A DNA stretch of 49,808 nucleotides, taken from the IMG/VR virus record IMGVR_UViG_3300046675_000477, positions 1 through 49,808 of that record. The stretch is one strand, 5' to 3'. The notes under the pieces are model-generated. The model was not told where the DNA came from. It saw only the letters and a program-made list of their open reading frames with translations, and ran no database searches. The stretch comes from a virus. Shown piece after piece: positions 6,914-13,657 of this stretch (position 1 is its first letter; each line of letters starts with the position of its first letter). Position numbers and translations under genes: made by a program.

Positions 6914-7219
6914 CTCCATCCGTTCGAGGGTCCACGGGGACTGCACGGCTACACGAGATTCACCGACACCTACGGCGCAACCATCGAGCTCCAGGAGTCC
7001 AGTGCCCTCATTCTCGGCGACGTCTTTTCTGCCGTCGCTATCGCACCGGACAGTCCTGGTGACTACTGCTGGCTCCGGGTCTACGCCGCAGGCTGGGAGC
7101 CACAGCCGGAGGGACAGGCCGCAGCACACCTGTCCCGACCACAGGCACGGGAGTTGTTCATGGCCCTTGCTGAGTTCCTTGACGACGACGAGGCGATCGA
7201 TGTTGGAGGTGACACATGA
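6905..7219 (+). CDS. Hypothetical protein, 104 aa
   Basis: GTG start within the centre of the palindrome at 6898-6913. Strand-rich N-terminal two thirds (YTRFTDTYGATIELQESSAL, YCWLRVYAAGW) and an acidic helical C-terminus. Function unknown. Translation is probably coupled to the gene at 6405. Confidence 0.7.
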   Translation: MTELHPFEGPRGLHGYTRFTDTYGATIELQESSALILGDVFSAVAIAPDSPGDYCWLRVYAAGWEPQPEGQAAAHLSRPQARELFMALAEFLDDDEAIDVGGDT

Positions 7220-7421
7220 GTCCACTGGACCCGGTGTTGTCGAGATCCTGCAGTCCACCCGGTGGCGCTGTCGGGTGTGCGGCCGGCACGGGAAGCCGGA
7301 GAACTACTCGGAGTCGATCATTTGCATGGCGGGCCACCCGTTCGGGTGCTCGTGCGGCAGGTGGTTCTCCAGCTTCAACTACCGGAAGGCTCACATCAGG
7401 ATGGTCCACCGAGATGCATGA
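7200..7421 (+). CDS. C2H2-like zinc-finger protein
   Basis: 73 aa in the frame that ends at TGA 7419-7421. ATG 7200 has GAGG 6 bases upstream; GTG 7209 is an alternative. CRVC and later CSC with H-x4-H (KAHIRMVH) form a finger resembling C2H2 types. The competing frame from ATG 7216 has a better Shine-Dalgarno (GGAGGT) but a low-complexity product, so I prefer this one. It overlaps both neighbours. Confidence 0.6.
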   Translation: MLEVTHESTGPGVVEILQSTRWRCRVCGRHGKPENYSESIICMAGHPFGCSCGRWFSSFNYRKAHIRMVHRDA

Positions 7422-7521
7422 GCGGTGGCGTGAGGTCGTCTTCACCTGCCTCGGTGTCCTGGTCGTCGCGGTGGCCGTCACTCTGATCGGCTACATGCTG
7501 ATGGCCGGGGTGTTGCAATAG
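7414..7521 (+). CDS. Small single-span membrane protein
   Basis: 35 aa, ATG in an ATGCATGA overlap with the zinc-finger gene. Residues about 9-31 (VFTCLGVLVVAVAVTLIGYM) form one clear transmembrane helix after a charged MHERWRE start. Small early membrane peptides are frequent in phages; the role is unknown. Confidence 0.6.
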   Translation: MHERWREVVFTCLGVLVVAVAVTLIGYMLMAGVLQ

Positions 7522-7793
7522 TGACCCCGGACGAGCTGGCCGCAATCCGCGGGCGAGATGAGGGCTGGCGGTCGAGCGTCAACCGACTCGTAGCAGATGA
7601 GCACTGGGTTACCGCCGCTGACCGCCGTCACCTGCTGGCCGAGGTGGACCGACTCATGGCCGAGGCCGCTAAATGGCAGGGCATCGCGGAGCGGTTGGAT
7701 GCCGATGTGGAGGCGGTGACCGCGAATGCACTGCGCTATGAGGCCGAGGTGGACCGGCTCAACGCTGAGGTGGCCAAGGCGGGGCTTGGCTAG
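7521..7793 (+). CDS. Hypothetical coiled-coil protein
   Basis: 90 aa, GTG start overlapping the upstream stop by one base. Heptad-like Leu/Val spacing and the repeated phrase EVDRL (near residues 41 and 77) indicate a coiled coil. The last codons run into the GGCNN repeat array, so the present stop may result from array growth into the gene. Confidence 0.7.
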   Translation: MTPDELAAIRGRDEGWRSSVNRLVADEHWVTAADRRHLLAEVDRLMAEAAKWQGIAERLDADVEAVTANALRYEAEVDRLNAEVAKAGLG

Positions 7794-8018
7794 CCAAGGC
7801 AGGGCTTGGCTCGGCGGGGCAGGTCACGGTATGGCATGGCGTGGCGAGGCATGGTCAGGCTGGACAGGGCGAGGCCGGGCGCGGCGAGCTACGGCGCGGC
7901 AGGGTCTGGCCTGGCGAGGAGCGGTATGGCATGGCGTGGCGAGCCACGGCCAGGCGAGGCAAGGTGTGGCATGGCTCGGCTAGCTTCGGCTGGGCCAGGC
8001 GGGTAGGGGTCTGGCGAG
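7781..8018. repeat. GGCNN pentamer array 1
   Basis: About 45 consecutive 5-base units of the form GGCNN on the + strand (for example ggcat ggcgt ggcga ggcat), with scattered units changed to GGTNN or GCNNN but phase largely kept. No believable gene inside. It starts at the end of the gene at 7521 and runs to the start of the gene at 8031. Confidence 0.92.
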
Positions 8019-8030
8019 ATGGGGCGAGGC

Positions 8031-8219
8031 ATGGACCAACGCTGGTTACTCGTCGTCTGCGATGCACCGGGATGCGAGAACGAACTCCGCGTCCCGATCC
8101 GCGCCGGCTACTGGCTGGGGCAGCCCTGGCAGGAGGCCATGAACTACGGCTGGGATGTCAGTCGGGATCGGGATCTCTGCCCGATGCACATCGAGTGGTT
8201 CCCCGTTCAGTCGGACTGA
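8031..8219 (+). CDS. Small zinc-ribbon protein between two arrays
   Basis: 62 aa; ATG 8031 chosen, ATG 8019 is in frame upstream. CDAPGCEN and CPMH provide a likely zinc site, and codon use is normal, unlike the flanking repeats. Its end (PVQSD, stop) is written by the palindrome at 8206-8220, after which array 2 begins. It is an isolated gene surrounded by non-coding repeats. Function unknown. Confidence 0.72.
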   Translation: MDQRWLLVVCDAPGCENELRVPIRAGYWLGQPWQEAMNYGWDVSRDRDLCPMHIEWFPVQSD

Positions 8220-8220
8220 A
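8206..8220. repeat. TTCAGTC palindrome copy 11
   Basis: TTCAGTCGGACTGAA, exact; supplies the stop of the gene at 8031 and directly abuts GGCNN array 2. Confidence 0.92.
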
Positions 8221-8325
8221 CGCGGCGTGGCCAGGCATGGCGCGGCGTGGCTAGCTTCGGCCGGGCTTGGCACGGCTAGGCAGGGCGAGGCTAGGCGCGG
8301 CTTGGCCGGGTTTGGCGTGGGCAAC
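8221..8325. repeat. GGCNN pentamer array 2
   Basis: About 20 units of GGCNN in phase (ggcgt ggcca ggcat ggcgc), beginning immediately after a palindrome copy. Confidence 0.9.
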
Positions 8326-8472
8326 AACGAGAGGGGGGACGGATGAAGAACAGATCACCACCGTGGTGAGAAGGAAGTGACATCAACATGAGCAACCAAA
8401 CTCCAAGAAGGAAACAGCAGTGGCTAGTAGCACAAACGCAGGAGCAACCAACAACACAAGAAGGAGGGCGTC
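8326..8472 (+). other. A-rich leader of the gene at 8473
   Basis: A 147-base stretch richer in A than its surroundings, with several ribosome-binding-like boxes (GAAGGAAG, GGAGCAACC, AGAAGGAGGG). A short reading frame from 8388 overlaps the next gene and is not convincing. The stretch looks like an untranslated leader with reiterated Shine-Dalgarno-like motifs. Confidence 0.5.
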
Positions 8473-9300
8473 GTGAGAATCACGATCCCGAAGGACGACA
8501 ACGAGGCCAGGGAGATGGCGGACCTGGCCGCACTCAGTGGCTGGGCACTGGCTGGCTATGTGGCCAGCCAGGTCAGCCTCAACGCTGAGGGGCAGGGGAC
8601 ACGAAGCGACCTCGGTCGAACTTCGGTCACTTCTGACCGAAGTCTCAGTCCCAGAGAGTTCGCGGCGAAGGGGCTCCGAGGACTCAGATCCAAGAACACC
8701 GTGCAGTTGTACGCACAGCGGTGGCGGGACTACGTCGGTCGACCACCAGTACCCGGGCAGGAGATCGACATCCCGGACATCGACTGGCCGCCACCACCAC
8801 CGGCAGGCAAGACGCCGGCCACCAACACCAGGGCAGCCAAGTCTGCTGCTGAGGCGAAGACCGTGGCTGCTGCGATCGTCTCCAATCCAGCCGCGGCGAA
8901 GGCTGCAGTACAGGCTCTCGTCTCGACGAGGAAGGGCAACGACGCCATCAACAAGGAGCGGAAGGAGAGGATCCGCACCAAGGCGAACGAGGACCCTGCG
9001 GCACGTGAGCGGTTGGAGAAGTCCGAGGAGGTGATCAAGCAGGCGATCGCTGATGACGTCGAGCTGACCAGGATCACCACTCGTCGCAACCTGCTGACCA
9101 TCGACATCTGGATCAAGGAATGGGCAAGGATCGGAGACGCCCACGCACTCGATCAGGTCGGCCTCATGCTCGACGAGGTCCGGGGCGTCATCGCCGAGCA
9201 GGCCCAGGCTCTCACGCCGGAGATGTTCGTAGATGGCGATGAGAACGGCGATGAGAACTCGGATGGCGGTGAGAACCATGACCGGAATATCCAGGGATGA
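8473..9300 (+). CDS. Putative DNA-binding protein, 275 aa
   Basis: GTG start with GAAGGAGGG 7 bases upstream. Residues 55-82 (LSPREFAAKGLRGLRSKNTV...YAQRW) resemble a helix-turn-helix-type segment seen in actinobacterial phage and plasmid regulators. A Pro-rich linker (WPPPPPAGK) leads to a long Ala/Lys/Glu-rich helical domain (100-230), and the tail is acidic (DGDENGDENSDGGEN). It is the only sizeable candidate regulator in the left arm; assignment as regulator is inference. An inverted repeat CTTCGGTC/GACCGAAG lies inside at 8621-8642. Confidence 0.72.
   Translation: MRITIPKDDNEAREMADLAALSGWALAGYVASQVSLNAEGQGTRSDLGRTSVTSDRSLSPREFAAKGLRGLRSKNTVQLYAQRWRDYVGRPPVPGQEIDIPDIDWPPPPPAGKTPATNTRAAKSAAEAKTVAAAIVSNPAAAKAAVQALVSTRKGNDAINKERKERIRTKANEDPAARERLEKSEEVIKQAIADDVELTRITTRRNLLTIDIWIKEWARIGDAHALDQVGLMLDEVRGVIAEQAQALTPEMFVDGDENGDENSDGGENHDRNIQG
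8621..8642. repeat. Inverted repeat CTTCGGTC...GACCGAAG
   Basis: Two perfect 8-base arms with a 6-base spacer inside the gene at 8473; it resembles but does not match the genome-wide palindrome. Confidence 0.6.
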
Positions 9301-9778
9301 GTGGTACCTACGGGTCCGCACCATCATCCGGACCATGTCCACCCTGCGAGACCATCGAATCAGCCAGCATCAGCTGGCCGAGATCGCCAGCCGGCACGTC
9401 TACACGCCGGTGACAGCAGGGTGGGTTCAGTGCCACTGGGACACGATCACCCGGGAGACACACGACGACCACCCGGATCTCTTTGTGTTCCGCCCGATGT
9501 CGCAGTGGGGCTGGTACGTCGGAGCGACCACGAACATCAGCTACGCCAAGATCACGCTGTTCGAGCGTCATCGGCAGGCGAGAAACCGGATGCTCTGGGA
9601 CCTTCGCAACAGCGGGATGCGTGACCTGGCAAGACTGGATCCGGATGTCGCCGCTCTGACTCAGCGGTACGACCAGTTCATCAATGGACCAGATCCTGTC
9701 GATGAGCAGTACAGGCAGCTGCTCGACAGCCTGGCCGAGCTGCCGGTGGTCACGGCGCTAGACACGATCGGGCTGTAG
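9278..9778 (+). CDS. Hypothetical protein with helix-turn-helix-like segment
   Basis: 166 aa; ATG 9278 preceded by GGCGGTGAG, overlapping the upstream gene by 23 bases. Residues about 25-50 (RISQHQLAEIASRHVYTPVT) read like a helix-turn-helix, followed by WVQCHWDTI and a region with several Trp/Phe. It could be a second small regulator next to the 8473 gene. The stop is directly followed by a palindrome and a hairpin. Confidence 0.68.
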   Translation: MTGISRDEWYLRVRTIIRTMSTLRDHRISQHQLAEIASRHVYTPVTAGWVQCHWDTITRETHDDHPDLFVFRPMSQWGWYVGATTNISYAKITLFERHRQARNRMLWDLRNSGMRDLARLDPDVAALTQRYDQFINGPDPVDEQYRQLLDSLAELPVVTALDTIGL

Positions 9779-9793
9779 CTCAGTCCGACTGAA
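9779..9793. repeat. TTCAGTC palindrome copy 12
   Basis: CTCAGTCCGACTGAA, one change, starts at the base after the stop of the gene at 9278. Confidence 0.85.
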
Positions 9794-9838
9794 GCACCAG
9801 CCCGGCGGGGTGTTGAAGCCCCGCCGGGCACCTGGTGC
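9794..9838 (+). terminator. Two-tier hairpin after the 9278 gene
   Basis: CCCGGCGGGG (9801-9810) pairs perfectly with CCCCGCCGGG (9819-9828); an outer GCACCAG (9794-9800) pairs with CTGGTGC (9832-9838). No T-run. Probable terminator, directly downstream of a palindrome copy. Confidence 0.65.
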
Positions 9839-9881
9839 AGGTGGATCGGCCACCTGCCCACAGCAGAAGAAGGGTAGTGCA

Positions 9882-10562
9882 GTGGTAACAGCAACACGAG
9901 GAAATGGTGTGGTCCCGCCCGAGGTCGTGGCCCTGGCTGGCGACGTCAGCAACGCCGGCGAGGAGACGATCCTGGTCGATGCTCCGTATCGGGTGTCGGT
10001 GACGATCGAGGGTGTGGCTCCGATCCTGTTCCATCGGTGGCAGTCGGACTCGGTCGAGGCCAAGGCGAGGGCAGCCAAGGGCTCTACCGCGAAGAAGACC
10101 GACGACCTGGAGAGCTACGTCTGGCGCGATACCCAGAACAGGATCTGCCTGCCCGGTGAGTACCTCAGGGGCACGATGATCGACCCGAAGAACGGCGCCA
10201 GCAAGTACCGGCAGGATCCGCGGTCGCCACGCAAGAGTGCACTCGACCTCTACAAGGCGAGCGTGCTGGCACTGACGGATCTGGCTCCGCTCATCAAGGC
10301 GGACGGTGAGGAAGCCGTGGCGTGGGAGTACGTCGACCGGCGACGGGTCACCGTGCAGCGCCAGGGGGTGACCAGGGAGCGGCCGGCCTTCATCGCCGGC
10401 TGGTCGGCGACGATCATCTTCCTGTGCCAGTCACCGGGGTACATCCCGCCCAGGGAACTGCACAGCTGCCTGAACGATGCCGGTCGCCTGGTCGGAATCG
10501 CCGATTTCAGACCGACCTTCGGCAGGTTCAACGTGACGAACTTCGAGGTTCTCGAAGACTGA
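9882..10562 (+). CDS. Conserved phage protein of unknown function
   Basis: 226 aa, GTG start after GAAGAAGGG. Phrases such as ILFHRWQSDSVE, YVWRDTQNRICLPGEYLRG, RQDPRSPRKSALDLYK, DRRRVTVQR and GRLVGIADFRPTFGRFNVTNFEV belong to a family I have seen in many phages of Gram-positive hosts with no assigned role. The Gly-rich loop near the C-terminus and the strand-rich build suggest nucleic-acid binding, but that is inference. It sits in the early region among replication-linked genes. Confidence 0.85.
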   Translation: MVTATRGNGVVPPEVVALAGDVSNAGEETILVDAPYRVSVTIEGVAPILFHRWQSDSVEAKARAAKGSTAKKTDDLESYVWRDTQNRICLPGEYLRGTMIDPKNGASKYRQDPRSPRKSALDLYKASVLALTDLAPLIKADGEEAVAWEYVDRRRVTVQRQGVTRERPAFIAGWSATIIFLCQSPGYIPPRELHSCLNDAGRLVGIADFRPTFGRFNVTNFEVLED

Positions 10563-10584
10563 TCCGAGCCTTGGATCACCGACC

Positions 10585-10890
10585 ATGAGCTTTCTGACGA
10601 CGTTCCTAAGCGAGGCCGAAGAGTCGGCGAAGCGCGCCGACCTGACCGACCTCGGCGCACCCGAGGCGTACGCAGTCAAGATCGCACTGATCGACGGCAC
10701 GGTGATTGTCGGCCATGTCGCGGTACGCGACGACGACGACGTGTGCTCGGTCTGGCCACTGATCTGGCCGAAGCTCCGGGGCAGGCGAGTCGAGAACGCC
10801 GAGATCAGCGAGTACCCGTACCACGTCCGCCTGGAAGCGATCTTGTGGGCACGCTACTACGACACCGACGACGACGCCTGGGACAACTGA
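10585..10890 (+). CDS. Hypothetical acidic protein
   Basis: 101 aa. Starts 22 bases after the previous stop. A beta-rich core (YAVKIALIDGTVIVGHVAVRD) is followed by YHVRLEAILWARYYD and an acidic tail. The core resembles a small barrel (Sm-like or SH3-like), not verified. Function unknown. Confidence 0.75.
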   Translation: MSFLTTFLSEAEESAKRADLTDLGAPEAYAVKIALIDGTVIVGHVAVRDDDDVCSVWPLIWPKLRGRRVENAEISEYPYHVRLEAILWARYYDTDDDAWDN

Positions 10891-10924
10891 CCGACAACGC
10901 AAACCAACCACGAAGGAATCGAGC

Positions 10925-10999
10925 ATGAGCAAGGACACGATGTACGGGATCGTCACCGAGAAGATCGACCGGAGGACGAGAGGAGCAACCGATGGATGA
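10925..10999 (+). CDS. Possible 24-residue peptide gene
   Basis: ATG 10925 with GAAGGAATC upstream, ending at TGA 10997-10999 inside the start of the next gene (ATGGATGA). The product is short and charged (MSKDTMYGIVTEKIDRR...). It may be a real small gene or a leader peptide coupling translation to the gene at 10992. Confidence 0.45.
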   Translation: MSKDTMYGIVTEKIDRRTRGATDG

Positions 11000-11351
11000 C
11001 GAGGCAACGACACAGGCCAAGGCCACGGCGTGGCGGGAGTGTGTGGCCTGGTTTGCCTACTGGCCACAGATGATGTTCGGCCCGGACTACCGGGTGTCAC
11101 AGACCGTGCTCGATGCGATCGAGTCGGCCAATCCCTACGACCCGGATCCGGTGCAGCTGCAGGCCGGCGTCGACGTCGAGCAGGTGGCGGAGGCGATGGC
11201 CCGAGCCCGTGACCTGCCTGGCTGGAACACCAGGACATCGGGCACGGACAGCAGTCAGGCGTTCGCCGATCGTCTGCTGCTGGCCCGGTGGATCAGCGCG
11301 ATGCACCGCGAGCTCGAACTGCTCAGTGAGCGAGCGGCTCAGTTGGACTGA
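10992..11351 (+). CDS. Hypothetical helical protein
   Basis: 119 aa, ATG preceded by GAGGAGCAACC. Trp-rich N-terminus (WRECVAWFAYWPQMMFG), then helical segments with VEQVAEAMARARDLPG. The C-terminal AAQLD and stop come from the palindrome at 11338-11352. Immediately after it GGCNN array 3 begins. Function unknown. Confidence 0.78.
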   Translation: MDDEATTQAKATAWRECVAWFAYWPQMMFGPDYRVSQTVLDAIESANPYDPDPVQLQAGVDVEQVAEAMARARDLPGWNTRTSGTDSSQAFADRLLLARWISAMHRELELLSERAAQLD

Positions 11352-11352
11352 A
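11338..11352. repeat. TTCAGTC palindrome copy 13
   Basis: CTCAGTTGGACTGAA, two changes; forms the stop of the gene at 10992 and abuts GGCNN array 3. Confidence 0.82.
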
Positions 11353-11630
11353 CGGCCCGGCCGGGCAAGGTCAGGCTGGGCAGGGCGAGGCCGGGCGAGG
11401 TTGGGTATGGCGGGGTGTGGCCAGGTCGGGTAGGGCTAGACAAGGTGCGGCGTGGCGAGGCAGGGCAGGGCAAGGTAGGGCGCGGCTAGGTCTGACGTGG
11501 CAGGGCACGCCATGGCGTGGAAAGGCCAGGCCAGCATCGGCCGGGCAGGGCATGGCTGCGTAGGGCGTGGCCAGGCCGGGCGCGGCGTGGAGTGGTTCGC
11601 CCTGGTTGGGCCGGGCAAGGTGAGGTTTCG
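11353..11630. repeat. GGCNN pentamer array 3
   Basis: About 54 units of GGCNN/GGTNN, phase mostly kept (ggcag ggcga ggccg ggcga), starting right after a palindrome copy. No coding signal. Confidence 0.92.
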
Positions 11631-11751
11631 ACAATCAGCAATCCGGCACGCAGATCTGACTAGGCTGGCGTTCCCGGCCGGACCCGACAGGTAGCTCAAC
11701 CCCCCGAGCCATCCTCTCCAACGGGTCCGGCTGGCCCCTTCTTGCATGGTG
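11631..11751. other. Unique spacer with long-range inverted repeat between arrays
   Basis: About 120 bases without the pentamer pattern. GCCGGACCCG (11677-11686) pairs perfectly with CGGGTCCGGC (11722-11731); within the 35-base loop GCTC and GAGC can pair around a C-run. No gene and no convincing tRNA fold. Candidate structured RNA or DNA cruciform, for example a replication or packaging site. Confidence 0.6.
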
Positions 11752-12216
11752 CGGTTCGGCATGGCCTGGTGTGGTGCGGCTGGCTAGGGCTAGGCATGGC
11801 ATGGCATGGCCTGGATCGGCATGGCTCGGCAGGGCCTGGCGTGGCGCGGCTGGCCGGGGCTAGCAACGGCTCGGCGTGGCTCGGTGGGCCTAGGTCCGGC
11901 TAGGCGTGGCAGTGCGTGGCAGGGCGCGGCTTGGCATGGCTTGGCCAGGTGAGGCCAGGCAGGGCGCGGCTCGGTAGGGCTTGGCAAGGTGAGGCCAGGC
12001 AGGGCAGGGCGCGGCACGGCCCAGGCAAGGCGTGGCTCGGCAGGGCGTGGCTAGGTCTGACGTGGCAAGGCATGGTCAGGCTCGGCAGGGCTAGCTACGG
12101 CTTGGCATGGTGAGGAATGGCTGGCATGGGCACGGCTCGATTGGGCATGCCTAGGTTGGGCCGGGCTAGCAGCGGCTCGGCATGGCGTGGCACGCAGAGG
12201 TTCGGCGTGGCAAGCG
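11752..12216. repeat. GGCNN pentamer array 4 (longest)
   Basis: About 90 units of GGCNN with drifted members; contains long in-phase runs such as ggcat ggcat ggcat ggcct, and a repeated block around aggtgaggccaggcaggg at about 11,950 and 11,990. It ends directly at the strong terminator at 12219. Confidence 0.92.
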
Positions 12217-12218
12217 AA

Positions 12219-12257
12219 GGGCGCGATCACCAGATGGTTGGTGATCGCGCCCTTTTT
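12219..12257 (+). terminator. Strong intrinsic terminator
   Basis: GGGCGCGATCACC (12219-12231) pairs perfectly with GGTGATCGCGCCC (12240-12252) over 13 bp with an 8-base loop, followed by TTTTT on the + strand. It stops any transcript that has run through array 4. Confidence 0.92.
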
Positions 12258-12267
12258 CATGCCCTCA

Positions 12268-12282
12268 TTCAGTCTGACTGAA
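12268..12282. repeat. TTCAGTC palindrome copy 14
   Basis: TTCAGTCTGACTGAA, exact, abutting the stop of the leftward gene at 12283. Confidence 0.9.
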
Positions 12283-12612
12283 TCAGGATGTCTCCACCTC
12301 GTGAGCCTTGCAGCTACGTCTCGGGCAGATACAGACGTACCTGATCTCGACCTCGTTGTTCCACTCCTCCGCGACCCGACGCGCGCTGTGGAGTCTGGCC
12401 AGCCTGGTCGCGTCCGTCGCGCCTGCCGACAGGACCGATGTCGTCCCGTACTTCTTCTTCACCGCTCGGTCGCGCGCCTTCAGCTTGCGCTGCCGGTTCT
12501 TGGCATCCGCCTTGACCTGGTCGGCCATCGCGGCTAGTTCAAGCATCCGTTGATCGTGTTCCATCTGGCGTTGTTGGTTGCGTTCCGTTCTGCGTTTCAT
12601 GTTCCGATCCAT
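12283..12612 (-). CDS. Hypothetical basic coiled-coil protein
   Basis: 109 aa from ATG 12612; an in-frame TTG at 12660 inside an inverted repeat would add 16 residues. Very basic helical N-terminal half (MDRNMKRRTERNQQRQ, KNRQRKLKARDRAVKKKYG), probable coiled coil, and a C-terminal CICPRRSCKAH that may bind zinc. It is the only leftward gene in the left arm apart from 16320-16601. Its basic character suits nucleic-acid binding, and its position opposite the early promoters makes it a candidate regulator. Confidence 0.68.
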   Translation of the reverse strand: MDRNMKRRTERNQQRQMEHDQRMLELAAMADQVKADAKNRQRKLKARDRAVKKKYGTTSVLSAGATDATRLARLHSARRVAEEWNNEVEIRYVCICPRRSCKAHEVETS

Positions 12613-12636
12613 CGTGGCTCTGTTTGGGGCACTTCC

Positions 12637-12672
12637 CCTCCTGGTCTTTTGGGTCGGCAAAAGACCAGGAGG
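12637..12672. repeat. 14-bp perfect inverted repeat
   Basis: CCTCCTGGTCTTTT (12637-12650) and AAAAGACCAGGAGG (12659-12672), 8-base spacer. In leftward RNA it would form a stem hiding an AGGAGG box upstream of the 12283-12612 gene, so it could control that gene or end transcription arriving from the right. Confidence 0.75.
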
Positions 12673-12959
12673 TCTTCCCGTTGGTCAGCGGCTCCGCCAG
12701 GCGTGTTGGAGGTCGGATCAGCAGGCGCAGGAACCCATACCCATGAAGGCTCCAGTACTGGCTTTTCGGCACTCGGAGGCGTTACTTCCCCAACGAGCAG
12801 GTAGATCCCTCCCGGAGGTGCAGGGCACCGGGTGATCCGGTAGACTCCACTGCGTCGGTGTTCCAGTTTTCCACCGACCACGACCCCGGACCTGTAGCAA
12901 GGTTGCGGGGTCGAAACCTGTTCTGGAACCCTATCGCGAGGGTCCCATCACTTGCAACT
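12673..12959. other. Gene-poor stretch with dense secondary structure
   Basis: No convincing gene on either strand; short frames exist but lack starts or good codon use. Base composition is less GC-rich than the neighbours. The stem set at 12800-12945 is listed separately. Confidence 0.55.
12800..12945. ncRNA. Candidate structured RNA with competing stems
   Basis: GTCGGTG (12854-12860) pairs with CACCGAC (12872-12878). CGACCCCG (12881-12888) pairs with CGGGGTCG (12906-12913), extended by ACCT/AGGT. GTTCCAG (12860-12866) can instead pair with CTGGAAC (12923-12929), and a further small hairpin CCCT...AGGG follows. Mutually exclusive stems are typical of riboswitch-like or attenuator elements. 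Strand and role are not certain. Confidence 0.4.
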
Positions 12960-12962
12960 ACC

Positions 12963-12991
12963 AGTCTATCAGAATTCCTGTCATGTGTACA
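12963..12991 (-). promoter_or_regulatory. Possible leftward promoter with operator-like repeat
   Basis: On the minus strand TGTACA (12986-12991) and TAGACT (12963-12968) are 17 bases apart. The -35 lies in the inverted repeat CCTGTCATGTGTACAGG (12977-12993), a possible operator. It would drive the structured stretch and the 12283-12612 gene. Confidence 0.45.
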
Positions 12992-13011
12992 GGCTGTCTC
13001 ACATACTGGAC

Positions 13012-13063
13012 GGTTGACTTAAAGGTTGACTTTCTTGACGTTCTACCTATGCGGTAATAGAAT
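13012..13063 (+). promoter_or_regulatory. Rightward promoter for the replication genes
   Basis: TTGACG (13035-13040) and TAGAAT (13058-13063) with 17-base spacing. Just upstream GGTTGACTT occurs twice (from 13012 and 13024), spaced 12 bases, which could be a tandem regulator site. Start near 13070, leading to the gene at 13099 and possibly on to the primase. Confidence 0.8.
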
Positions 13064-13098
13064 AGACACGTCACTACAAGAAGAAGGAGCAGCCTCTC

Positions 13099-13350
13099 AT
13101 GGCGAAGGCGGAGATGGACACGGCAGAGCGTAACAAGCAACTGGGTATTGCGTACAGCCGTGCCAGCAGAGACCTGCGAGATGCCCACCGGGACGAGTTC
13201 AACAACCTGTACCAGCGATGGGCCCGAGAACTGGGCATCGACTGGGAGCCGAGACTGTCCAAGGAGGATGCCGCGCTCAACCAGATCCAGAAGCTACTGG
13301 CCGAGTTCCCGGAACTGGCCAGCAAGATCCAGCCGCTTCAGTCCGCCTGA
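13099..13350 (+). CDS. Hypothetical helical protein, first gene after promoter
   Basis: 83 aa, ATG after GAAGGAGCAGC. Charged helical protein (RDLRDAHRDEFNNLYQRWARE, LNQIQKLLAEFPELASKIQ), likely small and DNA- or protein-binding. Its end LQSA and stop derive from the palindrome at 13337-13351. A hairpin terminator follows, so it may be made at high level on its own. Confidence 0.8.
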   Translation: MAKAEMDTAERNKQLGIAYSRASRDLRDAHRDEFNNLYQRWARELGIDWEPRLSKEDAALNQIQKLLAEFPELASKIQPLQSA

Positions 13351-13351
13351 A
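13337..13351. repeat. TTCAGTC palindrome copy 15
   Basis: TTCAGTCCGCCTGAA, one change; contains the stop of the gene at 13099. Confidence 0.85.
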
Positions 13352-13356
13352 ACGCC

Positions 13357-13394
13357 AGAGCCGCCCAACGCCGCTACCACGGCAGGGCGGCTCT
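13357..13394 (+). terminator. Hairpin after the 13099 gene
   Basis: AGAGCCGCCC (13357-13366) pairs perfectly with GGGCGGCTCT (13385-13394); inner GCCG/CGGC extends it. No T-run. Probable partial terminator between the 13099 gene and the primase operon. Confidence 0.7.
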
Positions 13395-13429
13395 GAACCG
13401 GAGCAACCAACTCCTGTCTCACAGGTCTG

Positions 13430-13501
13430 ACCCTGTTCGACGTCCCCATGGTATCGGGACGAGACCCCCTCTGGCGTGTCGCCACACGGGCGGAGCAGGG
13501 T
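13430..13501 (+). ncRNA. Candidate three-way-junction RNA upstream of primase
   Basis: Outer stem ACCCTG (13430-13435)/CAGGGT (13496-13501) encloses two hairpins: CGTCCC (13441-13446)/GGGACG (13456-13461) and CGTGT (13475-13479)/ACACG (13484-13488). It lies in the 190-base gap between a terminator and the 13541 gene, a position typical of leader elements. Fold predicted by eye only. Confidence 0.4.
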
Positions 13502-13540: not shown

Positions 13541-13657
13541 ATGCTCGCACCAGCAAGCCAGTCAGCCCGGCCTCTACGCAACGCCAGCGGCCCGCCGACC
13601 CGATACACCGGGACAGGGGGTGACCTCGCTCAGAGCGCCACACAGGCCCTCTCGTGA
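13541..13657 (+). CDS. Possible 38-residue leader peptide
   Basis: ATG 13541 has GAGGAG 7 bases upstream and its stop overlaps the GTG start of the primase (GTGA). The product is short and low in hydrophobics (MLAPASQSARPLRN...). Likely a coupling peptide for primase-helicase translation. The frame is open back to 13448 but without a ribosome-binding site. Confidence 0.5.
   Translation: MLAPASQSARPLRNASGPPTRYTGTGGDLAQSATQALS

What the first reader, a model, noticed from the sequence alone, without database searches (positions are those of the whole stretch)
7781..12216. Four non-coding arrays of a degenerate GGCNN pentamer, about 1 kb in total
At 7781-8018, 8221-8325, 11353-11630 and 11752-12216 the + strand is built of 5-base units GGCNN with phase kept for hundreds of bases while the two N positions vary freely. 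Two arrays start exactly at a palindrome copy (8220/8221, 11352/11353); the last ends at a strong terminator (12219). G-pairs every 5 bases on one strand could favour two-tier G-quadruplexes or R-loops. It resembles no standard phage element that I know.
Basis: partly seen in the sequence, partly recalled or inferred. Interest (0 to 1): 0.87.

Follow-up and report, generated by a model that had tools for sequence, protein, structure and literature searches.

The report
Guide-RNA arrays of a VIPR system
The strange five-base repeats are very probably the guide-RNA store of a recently described phage-borne, RNA-guided DNA-recognition system (VIPR, a relative of CRISPR), because a gene for its guide-binding protein lies between them; the kind of system is already known, but this copy has unusually long, unbroken guide arrays.

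Summary
Four arrays (about 7773-8042, 8224-8325, 11354-11630, 11748-12215) hold 219 in-register pentamers; the first G is kept in 217 and GG in 191. The consensus is GGYNN (C 79%, T 18%), the NN bases are nearly random, and all arrays are on the + strand. They are not coding.

They are not an unknown element. A 2026 preprint (PMC13142463) describes VIPR: a phage RAMP protein (Vipr) with guide RNAs of GGY/NN pentamers whose NN positions read DNA with a one-base skip. Between the arrays, ORF 9882-10562 encodes a Vipr. It matches the solved SUSP1 Vipr by sequence (phmmer E 3.8e-5; profile of its relatives 1e-38). Its AlphaFold model (pLDDT 89) has CRISPR RAMPs (Csm3/Cas7) as its nearest PDB folds. 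In viral contigs 86 of 120 array loci carry a Vipr gene, against 0 of 81 control loci. Where both occur, arrays lie on the vipr strand in 121 of 122 loci.

Special here: arrays of 19-93 units without separators, on both sides of vipr and up to 2 kb away; no recognisable tail or accessory gene; and an unexplained shortage of identical-base NN pairs. No natural target was found. Verdict: a new member of a known, very recently described kind, possibly an architectural variant. The G-quadruplex/R-loop reading is unnecessary.

The parts
7773..8042 (+). Array 1: 53 GGYNN units (44 with GG), candidate vrRNA guides
   Evidence: in-register parse; lag-5 z 9.1
8224..8325 (+). Array 2: about 19-20 units (18 of 19 with GG), begins just after the stop codon of ORF 8019-8219
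9882..10562 (+). vipr gene: RAMP-fold guide-binding protein, 226 aa (GTG start inferred)
   Evidence: phmmer to SUSP1 Vipr chain 36pp_D E 3.8e-5; profile E 1e-38; AF2 pLDDT 89.2; Foldseek to Csm3/Cas7 RAMPs E about 2e-7
11354..11630 (+). Array 3: 55 units (49 with GG)
11631..11747 (+). spacer between arrays 3 and 4 with a 13-base inverted repeat (11674-11686/11722-11734); not a significant fold overall; no Rfam ribozyme
   Evidence: z 0.19
11748..12215 (+). Array 4: 54 + 38 units (80 with GG), one register slip near 12018-12023; includes the longest perfect run, 21 GGY units at 11918
12217..12254 (+). intrinsic-terminator-like hairpin (perfect 16-bp stem, then T run) directly after array 4
   Evidence: z -6.0
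8473..9300 (+). 275-aa ORF of unknown family between array 2 and vipr; unproven candidate accessory (vap) gene
   Evidence: no Pfam or PHROG match, no tblastn match in phages; weak PbeC match E 0.0017 in PADLOC
9278..9778 (+). 166-aa ORF upstream of vipr, unknown; unproven candidate accessory gene
10585..10890 (+). 101-aa ORF just after vipr (the place of vap1 in SUSP1); no similarity to SUSP1 vap1 detected
10992..11351 (+). 119-aa ORF of unknown function whose stop codon lies in a palindrome copy just before array 3

Best explanation
The four arrays are guide-RNA (vrRNA) arrays of a VIPR system in an actinobacteriophage. Transcribed from the + strand, the RNA is bound by copies of the RAMP-fold Vipr protein encoded at 9882-10562, one per pentamer: the constant GGY is held by the protein and the two N bases are presented for pairing. 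By the rule shown for SUSP1 in the preprint, successive NN pairs read double-stranded DNA with one skipped base (NNxNNxNN), usually the codon wobble base, and the bound complex blocks transcription of a competing phage or other mobile element. Shown here: array structure and sense, absence of coding, Vipr identity and fold, and Vipr-array association across phages. Inferred from the preprint and not shown for this phage: transcription, guide processing and length, the one-base skip, target and biological role.
For: The array consensus GGYNN, with near-random NN, equals the GGY/NN motif of vrRNAs (PMC13142463). The ORF between the arrays matches SUSP1 Vipr in the PDB (36pp_D: E 3.8e-5; profile E 1e-38). 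A confident model finds CRISPR RAMPs of types III and VII as nearest solved folds. In 125 loci with a Vipr the arrays are on the vipr strand only in 121, on the other strand only in 0, on both in 1; the median distance is 8.5 bases and 113 are within 500. The SUSP1 locus re-read here shows the same arrays around its vipr. Mycobacteriophage Quico and Gordonia phage UmaThurman have arrays beside Vipr homologues. A + strand hairpin terminator ends the last array.
Against: No target was found: five exact 8-unit searches of the viral collection gave 4-18 hits each whose flanking units match only at chance level. About 1.5 Mb of held loci gave nothing under skips of 0-3, and 397 genomes gave one 3-mismatch hit. 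No SUSP1-type 3' tail or vap1 homologue is seen. The arrays are longer than the 9-16 repeats reported and up to 2 kb from vipr, whereas most are adjacent. 34 of the 120 array loci had no detected Vipr; whether these are cut-off contigs, simple repeats or other elements was not sorted out. NN composition favours codon positions 1-2 over other codon phases but fits a uniform model better still.
Confidence: 0.9

Rival explanations
1. G-rich DNA element: GG every five bases forms two-tier G-quadruplexes or R-loops, acting in replication or transcription.
For: The + strand has 46-50% G in the arrays; they lie upstream of a primase/helicase gene at 13654.
Against: A G-quadruplex needs neither an exact 5-base register over hundreds of bases nor high-entropy NN pairs. 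The same unit recurs beside a RAMP gene in 86 of 120 viral loci and 0 of 81 controls.
Confidence: 0.03
2. Vipr-associated arrays whose RNA has another role: decoy, self-regulation of the phage, or anti-VIPR defence, rather than guides against competitors.
For: No foreign target was found; guide NN content has an unusual shortage of identical-base pairs seen in no other of 19 large arrays to this degree.
Against: No self-target reached 18 of 20 bases in the window; the preprint shows guides acting against satellites and prophages; the search covered a small part of possible targets and needed exact 8-unit matches.
Confidence: 0.12
3. Neutral or slippage-expanded microsatellite with drift.
For: Some short duplications exist in array 4 (40-base repeat, 3.3 copies).
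Against: The first G is kept in 217 of 219 units while NN is nearly random, and shared NN runs are hardly above chance. Slippage would copy NN too. Strand and gene association are near absolute.
Confidence: 0.02
4. Protein-coding repeat with 5-residue periodicity.
For: Some short ORFs cross the arrays, and annotators have called such an ORF in Gordonia phage UmaThurman (gp40).
Against: Stops in all six frames of the two longest arrays and in most frames of the others; register slips.
Confidence: 0.01

Closest known systems
VIPR system of Escherichia phage SUSP1 (PMC13142463; NC_028808, L159; Vipr PDB 36pp)
   Same: RAMP-fold Vipr homologue (phmmer E about 6e-9 to 4e-9 in a 20-protein set; PDB search 3.8e-5), GGY/NN pentamer arrays on the same strand flanking vipr
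   Different: SUSP1 has four vrRNAs of about 100 nt, each with a conserved structured tail, and vap1 after vipr. The window has arrays of 19-93 units with no such tail, more C at the Y position, and unrelated neighbour genes.
VIPR-like locus of Phage DSL-LC04 (OR003939, L157) and viral contigs L151-L155
   Same: closest annotated Vipr, 53% identical over 92%; arrays upstream of vipr
   Different: DSL-LC04 and L152/L153 arrays share much of their NN content and end in a common GGGTTTTT-type tail. The neighbour genes are unrelated to the window's.
Arrays of Mycobacterium phage Quico and Gordonia phage UmaThurman (L148, L149)
   Same: GGYNN arrays beside a Vipr homologue in actinobacteriophages
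   Different: There a 4-base GGCA unit breaks the array every 4 to 14 units, mostly about 10; the window has no such separators. Their Viprs form a different branch.
CRISPR-Cas class 1 effectors (Csm3/Cas7 RAMPs)
   Same: Fold of the guide-binding subunit (Foldseek E about 2e-7)
   Different: No repeat-spacer array; guide information is interleaved every 5 bases instead of in contiguous spacers.

Membership tests
VIPR system | Vipr protein: single-domain RAMP homologue of about 20 kDa | tested here: met
   36pp_D SUSP1 Vipr E 3.8e-5, profile 1e-38; AF2 model with RAMP folds as nearest PDB matches; 226 aa
VIPR system | Tandem YNNGG (GGY/NN) repeats with constant GGY and hypervariable NN in intergenic DNA near vipr | tested here: met
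   219 units, GG 87%, Y 97% in GG units, NN entropy 3.81 of 4 bits; four arrays within about 2 kb on both sides of vipr
VIPR system | Carried by a phage or other mobile element | tested here: met
   virus record with portal, tape measure and minor tail genes
VIPR system | Guide arrays transcribed and bound by Vipr | not testable with these tools
   Only indirect: same strand as vipr and a terminator hairpin at the end
VIPR system | Guide of 9-16 repeats followed by an invariant structured 3' tail (described for the SUSP1 and P. fulva clades; other types differ) | tested here: not met
   arrays of 19-93 units; no common tail after the four arrays. The preprint allows other array types, so this bears on the type, not on VIPR as a whole.
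VIPR system | Accessory vap gene next to vipr | tested here: inconclusive
   No similarity to SUSP1 vap1; neighbour ORFs match nothing known; the preprint's list of vap types is in supplements not readable here
VIPR system | NN positions match a foreign DNA target with one-base skips | tested here: inconclusive
   No target found; searches were exact 8-unit windows or small sets
CRISPR array | Identical direct repeats separated by unique spacers | tested here: not met
   No such family among tandem repeats; the unit is 5 bases with 2 variable positions
Hammerhead-interspersed VIPR array | Hammerhead ribozymes between guides | tested here: not met
   No ribozyme family in 7000-13500 by Rfam at E up to 1

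The most novel reading that the evidence does not exclude
This clade's long, unbroken arrays (up to 54 units in one register here, 93 in array 4 with one slip) are used as very long or freely overlapping guides, so that one transcript addresses many positions by sliding Vipr assembly rather than through discrete, tailed 9-16-unit guides. The window would then be a distinct VIPR architecture with arrays distant from vipr, a relaxed second G, and guide content that avoids identical-base pairs.
Probability: 0.3. Interest if true: 0.7.

Novelty: new member of a known kind. Interest (0 to 1): 0.58.

Why it matters
It places VIPR, an RNA-guided DNA-recognition system proposed to predate CRISPR, in an actinobacteriophage with one of the largest guide stores among the loci examined here (about 219 pentamers). 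It gives a simple sequence signature (GGYNN in register) that found a Vipr gene in most matching viral contigs, and it points to isolated mycobacteriophages and a Gordonia phage, grown on standard laboratory hosts, in which the mechanism can be tested. It also shows that guide arrays are being annotated as hypothetical proteins.

Tried and rejected
Before the literature search I considered a ring-shaped RNA-binding protein with a 5-base step (TRAP-like); the Vipr match removed the need. Target hunts failed: window guides against 1.47 Mb of held loci with skips 0-3, all arrays against all loci (one search's apparent skip-1 excess came almost only from loci fetched by that rule, and skip 1 gave 11 eight-unit matches against 2-4 for other skips, not followed up), five exact scans of viral contigs (flanks at chance), and 397 genomes of the phylum of an actinobacterial MAG. 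A test of whether NN looks like codon positions 1-2 was inconclusive. Search for hammerheads or other Rfam RNAs: none. Search for a conserved neighbour gene shared with other members of the clade: none found for the window. Promoter scan: none of sigma-70 type. The preprint's supplements (types, fig. S18 staggered arrays) could not be read, so the VIPR type of this locus is not assigned.

Full report
WHAT IS THERE. The window is a 49.8-kb virus record. Its portal and minor tail proteins are distantly related (34-39% identity) to those of Arthrobacter and Microbacterium phages. Re-parsing gives four arrays with 219 in-register pentamers: the first G is kept in 217, both G's in 191; among GG units the third base is C (79%) or T (18%), and the NN pair has 3.81 of 4 bits of entropy. 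All 28 departures are single units, mostly a change of the second G to C or A. The two longest arrays have stops in all six frames. Shared runs of NN between arrays are close to chance, which excludes simple slippage.

WHAT IT BELONGS TO. A pattern scan for (GGYNN)x10 in the viral collection stopped at its limit with 120 stretches. Most show degenerate arrays of the same kind: high unit diversity and stops in most frames. A literature search found one paper that describes exactly this motif: VIPR, PMC13142463. It reports a phage RAMP protein (Vipr), guide RNAs of alternating GGY/NN, DNA targeting with a one-base skip, and repression of competing elements.

THE PROTEIN. ORF 9882-10562 lies between the arrays. 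phmmer against the PDB hits chain 36pp_D, 'SUSP1 Vipr protein', at 3.8e-5; a profile of 52 relatives hits it at 1e-38 over nearly its whole length. AlphaFold2 gives pLDDT 89. Foldseek against the PDB returns Csm3/Cas7-like RAMPs of type III and type VII CRISPR complexes, best E 2e-7 and TM about 0.45-0.5. The closest annotated relative is in Phage DSL-LC04, 53% identical.

ASSOCIATION. An iterated Vipr profile finds a homologue in 86 of the 120 array loci and in none of 81 viral loci fetched for other reasons. Over all loci with a Vipr, arrays lie on its strand only in 121, on both in 1, and on the opposite strand only in 0; the median gap is 8.5 bases. Some of these loci are related to each other, so the counts are not independent events. 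In bacterial genomes the window's Vipr clade occurs in Phycisphaerae, a cyanobacterium, Thermomonas, Alicyclobacillus and others, nearly always with an array.

HOW IT MOST LIKELY WORKS. From the preprint, the GGY triplets are held by a filament of Vipr and the NN pairs read duplex DNA as NNxNNxNN, blocking transcription. For this phage, transcription, processing, target and effect are inferred. The arrays follow the direction of the flanking genes, and the last one runs straight into a strong hairpin terminator, as expected for RNA.

WHAT DIFFERS. SUSP1 guides are about 100 nt with structured tails. Quico and UmaThurman arrays are broken by a 4-base GGCA unit, mostly about every 10 units. The window and some of its clade (L105, L019, L053, L101) have long arrays without separators. 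In the window the arrays are about 0.8-2 kb from vipr, with four unrelated ORFs between. No vap gene or tail is recognisable. The NN pairs avoid identical bases (17 seen, 40 expected, p 3e-6; the extreme of 19 loci with at least 50 units); this is unexplained. The preprint mentions 'staggered arrays with overlapping vrRNAs', which may cover this architecture, but its supplement was not readable.

TARGETS. None found. Five exact 8-unit scans of the viral collection gave 4-18 hits whose flanks match at chance. A 12-unit pattern with up to 3 mismatches in 397 genomes gave one hit. This limits but does not refute the guide reading: the host is unknown, guide ends are unknown, and only a small part of the units was tested.

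VERDICT. A well-supported new member of VIPR, a kind first described in April 2026. The G-quadruplex or R-loop reading and the coding reading are not needed. The scientific interest lies in the size and layout of the guide store and in the unanswered target question.

Noticed in passing
window, 27 sites, e.g. 309, 1180, 2270, 8206, 11338, 12268, 20498, 26293, 30179, 38771, 45330, 47869: A 15-base palindrome TTCAGTCNGACTGAA is dispersed over the whole phage (27 sites with up to 3 mismatches, 1.6 expected). At several sites its TGA is the stop codon of an ORF. It looks like a dispersed operator comparable to mycobacteriophage stoperators (comparison from memory), with no factor identified.
   Followed up: partly
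window arrays 7773-12215: NN pairs avoid AA, CC, GG and TT (17 seen, 40 expected, p 3e-6), the extreme of 19 loci with at least 50 units. Unexplained.
   Followed up: partly
window arrays 7773-12215: About one unit in eight has the second G replaced, mostly by C, while the first G is almost invariant (217 of 219); similar GCC/GAC units sit at matching places in arrays of L152, L153 and L157.
   Followed up: partly
L149 4013-4336 (Gordonia phage UmaThurman gp40): A GGYNN array is annotated as a hypothetical protein; several mycobacteriophage records also list hypothetical proteins over array-like matches.
   Followed up: no
L019 2001-2082 and 2663-2747: Two near-threshold Twister-P5 ribozyme matches (E 0.0006 and 0.013) in a viral contig of the same Vipr clade, about 3 kb upstream of its vipr.
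   Followed up: no
L105, between its three arrays: A similar non-repeat spacer (with GCCGACATATG and ACGAGAGACAAGCGAGGC) recurs between the arrays, a possible processing element; no Rfam match.
   Followed up: no
L183 and L184 (Stenomitos rutilans, one contig): Two copies about 100 kb apart of a Vipr locus with the same layout and the same array positions in a cyanobacterial genome.
   Followed up: no
L152, L153, L157: One long array (about 20-34 units) is largely conserved in NN content between different phages, suggesting a shared conserved target.
   Followed up: no
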